DNA from: Pseudobutyrivibrio sp. | GTDB taxonomy: Bacteria; Bacillota; Clostridia; Lachnospirales; Lachnospiraceae | Direction: 5' to 3' | Length of the DNA: 43,434 nt | Assembly (NCBI GenBank): GCA_024684955.1 | Contig: JAIKWH010000072.1 | Location: 1-43,434, forward strand | Part shown: positions 153 to 43,434 of the stretch, one piece after another | How the letters are laid out: each line of letters starts with the position of its first letter | Position numbering within the stretch: position 1 is the stretch's first letter | Program-made: the position numbers and the translations under genes | Notes under the pieces: generated by a model | Database searches by the model: none | Told to the model about the DNA's origin: nothing | What the model saw: the letters and a program-made list of their open reading frames with translations, nothing else

Positions 153-749
153 GCCCCACAGCAATTCTCAGCCTAAAGCCCCCTCCGAAGGGCTGGGCCC
201 CAAGTTTTCCTGACAATTGCAGGAAAATTCAAGTTTTTCTTATTGCCCCTAGGGAGCATCACATACCTGTCTTTTAACTGGTTTTACAATTCAAAAAAAT
301 GTGTGACTGACACAGACACTTATTTGTTTACAAATCTTGCAGGTCCTTTAGGGATAGTTGCTTTACCTCTCCGTTCAATAAGAAATGCGACAAAGTGAAT
401 TTGTGGGACCCAGGCGCCGCACTTTATGCGACGTCCTGTCGCTGTCGTGCTCTCGCCGACGTCCTGTCGGCTCACGCCTGCGTCCTCACAAATTCCCTTT
501 TGCATTTCTAATTTCACTACGAATCATAAAGCAACTATCTCCTAAAGGCCCCTGCAAGATATCAATTAAGTTTATGAGTGTCTGTGTCAGACACACTTTT
601 TTGAAGAATTGTAAAGAATTTAAAAGACAGGTATCAATAAGGATGCGAGTCTGGGGCAATTAGAAAAACTTAGAATTTTAGCTGCAGTCAGAAAACTTGG
701 GCCCATGGCCTTGGAGAGGCTTTTAGAATAAAACCCCCTGCTGTGGGGC
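153..749. repeat. Large (~600 bp) imperfect palindromic repeat element, copy 1
   Basis: The two halves are reverse complements of each other around a centre near 450. Paired landmarks are: GCCCCACAGCA at 153-163 with its complement at 739-749; GGGCCC...AAGTTTTC near 195-209 with GAAAACTTGGGCCC at 691-704; the GATAGTTGCTTT block near 352 with AAAGCAACTATC near 530; and AATTTGTG...CAGGCG near 399 with its complement near 476. The GC-rich centre holds two direct copies of CGACGTCCTGTCG. A short perfect hairpin, GTGTCTG-tgt-CAGACAC, at 578-594 is followed by a T run. Open frames inside it are read through the repeat and are not credible genes. A transcript of this region could fold into one long imperfect duplex. 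No transposase gene lies nearby, so a MITE-like or other non-autonomous family is inferred. A second copy lies at the other end of the window. Confidence 0.85.
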
Positions 750-763
750 CGGCGGGCGGGGTT

Positions 764-792
764 AAAAAAAGAGGATAGCCTTTGCTATCCTC
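764..792 (-). terminator. Intrinsic terminator of the fprA-like gene
   Basis: GAGGATAGC (771-779) pairs perfectly with GCTATCCTC (784-792) around a 4-base loop. On the minus strand the hairpin is followed by seven T residues (764-770). It lies immediately downstream of the flavodiiron protein stop codon. Confidence 0.9.
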
Positions 793-802
793 CTTTTGGG
801 GT

Positions 803-43078: not shown

Positions 43079-43434
43079 AATATCTCTTGCGGGCCTTGGC
43101 CCAAGTTCTCTGACGACGCTAAAATTCTTAGTTTTTCTAATTGCCCCAGACTCGCATCTTTTATTAGTGACTGTCTTTTAAATTCTTTACAATTCTTCAA
43201 AAAAGTGTGTCTGACACAGACACTAATAAACTTAATTGGTATCTTGCAGGCGCCTTTAGGAGATAGTTGCTTTATGATTCGCAGTGAAATTAGAAATGCA
43301 AAAGAGAATTTGTGAGGACGCAGGCGTGAGCCGACAGGACGTCGGCGAGAGCACGACAGTGACAGGACGTCGCATAAAGTGCGGCGCCTGCGTCCCACAA
43401 ATTCACTTTGTCGCATTTCTTATTGAACGGAGAG
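43079..43434. repeat. Palindromic repeat element, copy 2 (truncated by the window edge)
   Basis: From about 43160 to the window end this is about 96% identical by eye, with roughly ten differences in 260 bases, to the reverse complement of copy 1. Similarity extends more weakly outward to about 43079. It holds the same landmarks: GTGTCTG-aca-CAGACAC hairpin near 43208, GAGATAGTTGCTTTATGATT, AATTTGTGAGGACGCAGGCG and two GACAGGACGTCG copies. The element continues past the window end, so its outer arm is not visible. It begins about 35 bases after the terminator of the six-gene operon. Confidence 0.88.

What the first reader, a model, noticed from the sequence alone, without database searches (positions are those of the whole stretch)
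153..749. A 600-bp imperfect palindrome with no coding capacity
Nearly the whole gap before fprA is one inverted repeat around position 450. Matching blocks run from the ends to a GC-rich centre with two GACGTC-containing direct repeats. The arms differ by point changes and small indels yet keep their pairing landmarks, and the same arm is about 96% conserved in a second copy. That suggests selection on a fold, or recent spread. Possible natures are a non-autonomous mobile element, a long hairpin RNA, or a DNA structure used in chromosome organisation. The family is not one I recognise.
Basis: partly seen in the sequence, partly recalled or inferred. Interest (0 to 1): 0.7.

Follow-up and report, generated by a model that had tools for sequence, protein, structure and literature searches.

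The report
Self-mirroring mobile hairpin with RNA tip
The 600-base palindrome is one copy of a repeated, apparently mobile hairpin element of rumen and gut bacteria; its tip is a known but unexplained RNA motif, and its outer stems seem to be kept mirror-symmetric by DNA copying from one arm to the other.

Summary
In detail: window 153-749 is one imperfect palindrome (fold z -19.5). Its centre (366-524, minus strand) is Rfam TwoAYGGAY, RF01731; the GACGTC repeats are its GGA-loop hairpins. It matches 24 places in its genome, 21 reaching contig ends. The genus is Pseudobutyrivibrio; 27 of 29 genus and 35 of 200 family genomes carry TwoAYGGAY.

It looks like a non-autonomous transposable element: in relatives copies end in GTTACYATTCACAG repeats, 2 of 14 have flush 8-bp duplications, and one IS66-like element shares the ends. 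The window copy lacks these ends.

Surprisingly, outer stems are private to each copy yet self-complementary (8-mer sharing 0.52-0.70 within, 0.00 between copies). Changes often hit both arms at once, transversions included, mainly in one genome; outer mismatches show no G-U excess. At one locus, three empty sites lack the flank-to-flank identity. I read this as DNA template switching. csrA occurs in 34 of 35 TwoAYGGAY genomes, fitting but not proving CsrA binding.

The parts
153..749 (.). Whole palindromic element (imperfect inverted repeat, centre near 450)
   Evidence: the element matches its own reverse complement over 173-726
153..163 (.). Basal helix, left side: GCCCCACAGCA
   Evidence: pairs with 739-749
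739..749 (.). Basal helix, right side: TGCTGTGGGGC
   Evidence: pairs with 153-163
173..365 (.). Left arm, several helices separated by unpaired internal loops
   Evidence: inverted repeats I1-I7, alignment
527..726 (.). Right arm
   Evidence: inverted repeats I1-I7, alignment
366..524 (-). Apex: TwoAYGGAY RNA motif, Rfam RF01731
   Evidence: cmscan 52.2 bits, gathering score 43, E 7.9e-6
428..442 (-). GGA-loop hairpin, minus strand GCGAC-AGGAC-GTCGC
   Evidence: read from the sequence; repeat D1
455..471 (-). GGA-loop hairpin, minus strand GCCGAC-AGGAC-GTCGGC
   Evidence: read from the sequence; repeat D1
43098..43434 (-). Second copy, partial, inverted, cut by the contig end
   Evidence: 94.7% identity to the first
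43291..43419 (+). TwoAYGGAY motif of the second copy
   Evidence: cmscan 49.5 bits, E 3.2e-5
766..797 (-). Neighbour, not part of the element: terminator-like hairpin downstream of fprA
   Evidence: inverted repeat I9, T run read from the sequence

Best explanation
The palindrome is one copy of a dispersed, non-autonomous, MITE-like element of Pseudobutyrivibrio. It is spread in trans by a transposase that recognises GTTACYATTCACAG ends, most likely that of an IS66-like insertion sequence (ends and duplications shown in relatives; inferred for the window copy, which lacks them). Its apex encodes the TwoAYGGAY RNA, whose GGA-loop hairpins most likely bind CsrA (inferred from loop sequence and csrA co-occurrence; transcription not shown). 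Its outer stems are kept complementary by DNA template switching: the hairpin lets a stalled nascent strand copy one arm, or one flank, onto the other. Each copy so acquires private but self-complementary stems, and the palindrome can grow into host flanks, coding ends included (inverted identity missing from three empty sites is shown at one locus; the replication step is inferred).
For: 24 places in one genome, 21 reaching a contig end. Ends shared by elements of ~190, ~600-750 and 2961 bp, the last with an IS66-like transposase; flush 8-bp duplications in 2 of 14 end pairs 607-750 bp apart, plus an 8-9 bp one at the IS, exact repeats being 0.002 of 2000 swapped pairs. Private yet self-complementary stems in G021, G002, G239 and G126. 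Shared changes in both outer arms: 53 substitutions, 32 of them transversions, and 2 indels, against 25 single-arm substitutions. No G-U excess at isolated outer mismatches, 20 against 32 A-C. Three empty sites without the flank identity, scores 14-18 against 60. GGA-loop hairpin in 98 of 101 apices on one strand, 11 on the other, 33 in shuffles. csrA in 34 of 35 TwoAYGGAY genomes against 76 of 165 others.
Against: The window copy has neither the ends nor a duplication, and compared with L007 it shows no shared arm change (15 unchanged columns, 3 single-arm changes). 44 of the 53 shared substitutions come from two G239 pairs that share one copy; in the G021 pairs alone there are 9 shared substitutions against 12 single-arm ones. 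The IS66-like gene is complete in 1 of 29 genus genomes, a fragment in another, absent from the window's genome. Most end pairs have no duplication. Unpaired internal loops persist and core arms are not homogenised, which plain template switching does not explain. Inner mismatches do show a G-U excess, 46 to 24. G162 lacks the private-stem pattern. The csrA link is a correlation, not corrected for ancestry.
Confidence: 0.5

Rival explanations
1. A functional long hairpin RNA (CsrA sponge or another regulator) under selection for pairing. Private stems are ordinary compensatory evolution of old copies whose apex is conserved by function.
For: Strand-specific GGA loops; G-U excess at inner mismatches, 46 to 24, p 0.012; unpaired internal loops persist at similar places; csrA co-occurrence.
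Against: Outer arms: A-C not rarer than G-U, shared transversions and indels; flank identity reaching into coding ends, absent from empty sites; no preferred strand relative to genes, 9 against 14.
Confidence: 0.27
2. Old dispersed palindromes that no longer move; cores are kept alike by recombination between copies, and the shared ends reflect descent from a once active element.
For: Cores up to 99.3% identical while arms are unrelated; few duplications; partner IS rare.
Against: Two flush 8-bp duplications with intact ends in G021; three empty sites at the G002 locus. These show past insertion, not present activity.
Confidence: 0.15
3. The core inserts into pre-existing palindromes or terminators, so the private stems are target DNA.
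For: Some copies abut terminator-like hairpins.
Against: At the one locus with empty sites no palindrome exists there in three relatives; inserted ends lie outside the private stems in end-bearing copies.
Confidence: 0.05

Closest known systems
TwoAYGGAY RNA (Rfam RF01731)
   Same: The apex matches the family above its gathering score, with GGA-loop hairpins.
   Different: The Rfam model covers only the tip. In 27 of 31 loci the inverted repeat goes on outside it. The passages I read in the five listed papers do not describe a mobile palindrome. Rfam types it Cis-reg; the 2010 paper's table marks it probably an RNA and probably not cis-regulatory.
Bacterial MITEs and ERIC-like palindromic repeats
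   Same: Non-coding, multi-copy, intergenic, inverted terminal repeats, short target duplications in some copies.
   Different: Most of the length is palindromic (about 600 bp), the apex carries an RNA motif, and outer stems are private to each copy. The MITE review PMC10969869 has no mention of IS66 or CsrA (term search).
IS66 insertion-sequence family
   Same: An IS with a PF03050 transposase has the same 14-base ends; 8-bp duplications are typical of IS66 (recalled).
   Different: The element codes for nothing. IS66 ends usually begin GTAA (recalled); these begin GTTA. Other IS66 loci of the genus lack these ends.
Quasipalindrome template-switch mutations (PMC7202029, PMC8794818)
   Same: Arms made more perfect by copying one from the other; multi-base compensatory changes without G-U steps.
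   Different: The E. coli reporter is an 18-bp quasipalindrome and the RNA study looked at short rRNA stems. Here it would act over hundreds of bases, in a repeated mobile element, and on flanking coding ends.

Membership tests
Rfam RF01731 TwoAYGGAY | Covariance-model score above the gathering threshold | tested here: met
   52.2 and 49.5 bits against 43
Rfam RF01731 TwoAYGGAY | Two terminal hairpins with AYGGAY-type loops | tested here: met
   Both window hairpins have GGA loops (AGGAC). Over 101 apices 98 have at least one and 42 two or more by my stem rule; the exact AYGGAY hexaloop is not present in the window
Rfam RF01731 TwoAYGGAY | Is transcribed as an RNA | not testable with these tools
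   no RNA-seq held
MITE (non-autonomous transposable element) | Multiple dispersed copies without a transposase gene | tested here: met
   24 places; 92-aa ORF without a Pfam match
MITE (non-autonomous transposable element) | Terminal inverted repeats shared with an autonomous element | tested here: inconclusive
   Met in relatives; not seen at the window copy; in the window's genome seen at C3, C61, L001 and L002
MITE (non-autonomous transposable element) | Target-site duplication | tested here: inconclusive
   Flush 8 bp in 2 of 14 end pairs 607-750 bp apart; none seen at the window copy
IS66-dependent element | Cognate IS66 transposase in the same genome | tested here: not met
   No PF03050 match in the window's 86%-complete genome; full gene in G241 only
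CsrA-binding RNA | GGA in hairpin loops on the RNA strand | tested here: met
   consensus itself recalled and from PMC4333381 passages
CsrA-binding RNA | Host encodes CsrA | tested here: met
   G000:C64:16139-16294, E 4.3e-26
CsrA-binding RNA | Binds CsrA | not testable with these tools
   needs a binding assay
Template-switch (quasipalindrome) evolution | Reverse-complement patches absent from ancestors or relatives | tested here: met
   One locus, G002 against three empty sites; not tested at the window locus, where neighbours are not conserved

The most novel reading that the evidence does not exclude
A mobile element that builds its own stems: after insertion its hairpin makes the replication machinery copy host DNA from one flank to the other, so each insertion becomes a longer palindrome unique to its site and even rewrites the ends of neighbouring genes; the apex it carries is a transposon-borne CsrA-binding RNA, which would explain the orphan TwoAYGGAY family.
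Probability: 0.33. Interest if true: 0.8.

Novelty: new variant of a known kind. Interest (0 to 1): 0.6.

Why it matters
It offers a setting for TwoAYGGAY, an RNA family listed since 2010 whose function I found nowhere in the passages read: the tip of a transposon-like palindrome. It offers a natural many-copy system in which template switching could be watched making and maintaining long stems, a question raised for RNA hairpins in PMC8794818. It warns that covariation in repeated palindromes can come from DNA copying and need not prove selection on RNA. A CsrA-binding repeat, if confirmed, would add to CsrB-like sRNAs, which PMC4333381 (2014, passages seen) says were known only from Gammaproteobacteria when it proposed TwoAYGGAY as a candidate.

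Tried and rejected
Pre-existing palindromic targets: rejected at one locus by three empty sites.

Strictly cis-acting RNA (Rfam's type): no strand preference relative to genes. 39 of 40 elements were classed, 36 with a gene on both sides: opposite 14, same strand 9, convergent 10, divergent 3 (genes are mechanical ORFs of 90 aa or more).

First G-U test pooled internal loops and a few duplicate loci (GU 242, AC 264). It was replaced by isolated mismatches only (93 elements used, 20 of 113 dropped for short flank, low arm score or an inner arm identical to another copy).

Patchy matches deeper in coding flanks printed: own and swapped flanks become alike by about 280-340 nt outside the apex, with 1 of 9 G239 copies above the 99th percentile in each of the two next zones; not claimed further.

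TATAAT-like strings in some loops were seen by eye and not tested.

Other IS66 loci of the genus as partner: of 30 loci scanned, only L264, the same IS, has the end motif.

Exact empty site for the window: fprA found in 28 of 29 genomes; 24 of the 27 others were examined downstream (three were left out), none with an inverted repeat of 100 bp or more there, but the neighbouring gene varies.

Assembly artefact: thought unlikely because copies are imperfect, differ from each other and occur in many genomes; not separately tested.

Full report
OBSERVATION. Window 153-749 is one inverted repeat with its centre near 450. The RNA fold of 140-770 lies 19.5 standard deviations below 20 dinucleotide shuffles. 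A terminator-like hairpin downstream of fprA (766-797) lies outside the element.

APEX. cmscan finds the Rfam family TwoAYGGAY at 366-524 on the minus strand and at 43291-43419 on the plus strand. The two GACGTC repeats are, on the minus strand, GCGAC-AGGAC-GTCGC and GCCGAC-AGGAC-GTCGGC: two GGA-loop hairpins. Over 101 distinct apices, 98 have at least one GGA-loop hairpin on the RNA strand (42 have two or more), 11 on the opposite strand, and 33 in shuffled versions. Selection of hits by the Rfam model biases this count. In the pairs tabulated there, Watson-Crick 1136, G-U 18 (13 of them at the loop-closing pair), A-C 2, other 41; most positions of the first stem use three or four Watson-Crick types.

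COPIES. The 611-base query gives 45 matches in its own genome (86% complete, 84 contigs). Merging forward with palindromic reverse matches leaves 24 places, 21 of which reach within 3 bases of a contig end. Two places may be halves of one element, so copies number roughly 12-24. Two divergent copies are L001 and L002. Of 40 relatives, only G019 and G021 have a weak DNA match. Yet 27 of 29 genus genomes (own included) carry the RNA family, with 49 matches in G021, as do 35 of 200 genomes of the family. In 27 of 31 scorable loci (33 listed, 2 too short) the Rfam match sits in a longer inverted repeat that beats all 30 shuffles; one of these, L069, is asymmetric.

ENDS AND PARTNER. End-bearing relatives finish in GTTACYATTCACAG...CTGTGAATRGTAAC. 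The pattern TTACTATTCACAGY occurs in 23 of 29 genus genomes and in none of them in the reversed control. It bounds ~190-bp elements and, once in the genus, a 2961-bp element with an IS66-like transposase (PF03050, E 8.3e-18). The same IS, 99% identical in protein, sits at different flanks in Lachnospiraceae RGIG827 with the same ends and no evident duplication. Among 38 end pairs, 5 have an exact 8-9 bp direct repeat, against 0.002 of 2000 swapped pairs. L126 and L178 are one insertion seen twice, and the repeat of L183 is not flush. That leaves 2 of 14 pairs 607-750 bp apart (L156, L198, both G021) and the IS. The window copy lacks these ends. In its genome they are seen at one end of C3 and C61 and at both ends of L001 and L002. 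No IS66 transposase was found in the window's genome.

PRIVATE, SELF-COMPLEMENTARY STEMS. Zones were measured outward from the Rfam match in G021 (20 copies fetched of 49 matches), G002 (10 of the 11 fetched; L159 is cut) and G239 (9 fetched). At 160-200 nt the arms of one copy share a median 0.52, 0.70 and 0.64 of 8-mers, different copies 0.00. At 60-120 nt in G021 the order is reversed: 0.18 within, 0.44 between 5' arms. In fixed 50-nt outer windows, median identity within a copy is 0.75, 0.71 and 0.74 against 0.48-0.54 between copies. L173 and L174 are 99.3% identical in core but 53% and 60% in outer arms, near that background. In another genus (G126, 13 apices) the first 40 nt outside the match share 0.38 within and 0.01 between; in G162 (7) there is no such pattern, 0.19 against 0.24. 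So this is not universal. For the window family itself I could not do this test, since most copies are cut at contig ends. Pairs with related arms (L151/L157, L198/L199, L199/L156) differ by 15-24% in an outer window and by 4-6% in the core.

HOW THE STEMS CHANGE. Summed over six of eight pairs of related copies (two left out as non-independent), outer arms show 53 substitutions shared by both arms (21 transitions, 32 transversions) and 2 shared indels. Single-arm changes are 6 G-U, 15 A-C, 4 transversions and 4 indels. In the core there are 5 shared substitutions and 14 fixed mismatches. The weight is uneven: 44 of the 53 come from L172/L173 and L171/L172 of G239, which share L172. The three summed G021 pairs give 9 shared substitutions and 2 shared indels against 12 single-arm substitutions. 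The window element against L007 gives none shared and 3 single-arm. Isolated mismatches inside stems: outer G-U 20, A-C 32 (p 0.13); inner G-U 46, A-C 24 (p 0.012, not corrected for shared descent). Stepwise RNA compensation through G-U should favour G-U and transitions; the outer arms do not show this. The inner excess suggests RNA-level selection nearer the apex.

EMPTY SITES. The G002 element L165 lies between convergent genes, a PfkB-like gene B (my reading of its sequence) and gene A, whose matches end 603 nt apart. In G015, G016 and G012 the orthologous matches end 10, 16 and 16 nt apart. The 3' ends of A and B, each read on its own strand, match with score 60 in G002 (19 and 19 identical bases around an unpaired loop) against 15, 14 and 18 in the empty sites. 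The protein ends stay recognisable: A SKEHSTSEEDLNK against SPEYSTSQEEIEE in G016; B KNILHQIDIKQIDR against EKLINQITIEKIG. I read one patch as copied from A to B and one from B to A. The identity thus arose at or after insertion. This is one locus. In general, own-flank inverted identity fades by 280-340 nt from the apex.

MECHANISM. Template switching at quasipalindromes makes arms more perfect in E. coli (PMC7202029, abstract and passages seen) and has been proposed to create and maintain RNA hairpins (PMC8794818, abstract, start of the introduction and section 7 seen). A long hairpin would bring both flanks together at its base, so the same process could lengthen the stem outward. This does not explain why internal loops of roughly 11-17 nt stay unpaired in the copies I looked at, nor why core arms are not homogenised; gene conversion between copies or selection on the core are guesses.

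CsrA. csrA (PF02599) is found in 110 of the same 200 genomes: 34 of 35 with TwoAYGGAY (G207 is the exception) and 76 of 165 without (p 1.9e-9). In the better assemblies it is 26 of 27 against 61 of 137 (p 1.4e-7). The sample holds nearly one genome per genus, but ancestry is not corrected for. CsrA binding was proposed from the motif by others (PMC4333381, passages seen). A transcript is unproven.

LITERATURE. The library search for TwoAYGGAY gave 7 papers, 5 listed; I saw passages in all five, and none of those passages describes a mobile or palindromic element. Pseudobutyrivibrio with 'miniature inverted-repeat' gave 0 papers; CsrA with 'miniature inverted-repeat' and 'transposable element' gave 1, the Rfam 12 update, seen as a listing only. 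The library holds open-licence papers only, so this is no proof of absence.

Noticed in passing
L127, L129-L132, L181-L193 (for example L130:1509-1700): A ~190-bp element with the same GTTACTATTCACAGT ends and internal hairpins occurs in many Pseudobutyrivibrio genomes (20 of the 38 end pairs are 189-193 bp apart).
   Followed up: partly
L126:2280-5240 (G241:C31), L179: An IS66-like insertion sequence with a divergent PF03050 transposase and a 126-aa upstream ORF, bounded by the same ends; two insertions at different flanks.
   Followed up: partly
window 43434 and other contig ends of G000: The element appears to be a frequent cause of contig breaks in this assembly: 21 of its 24 places reach a contig end.
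   Followed up: no
L204, L208 (G126), L067 region of G048: TwoAYGGAY apices in inverted pairs about 300 nt or more apart, back to back.
   Followed up: no
L134:30-447 (G001:C163): A 417-bp palindrome with the same ends whose centre seems to lack the GGA hairpins; possibly a deletion derivative.
   Followed up: no
L238, bases 42-127 downstream of fprA (G241): A separate 86-bp inverted repeat (80%) just after fprA, not compared with the element.
   Followed up: no
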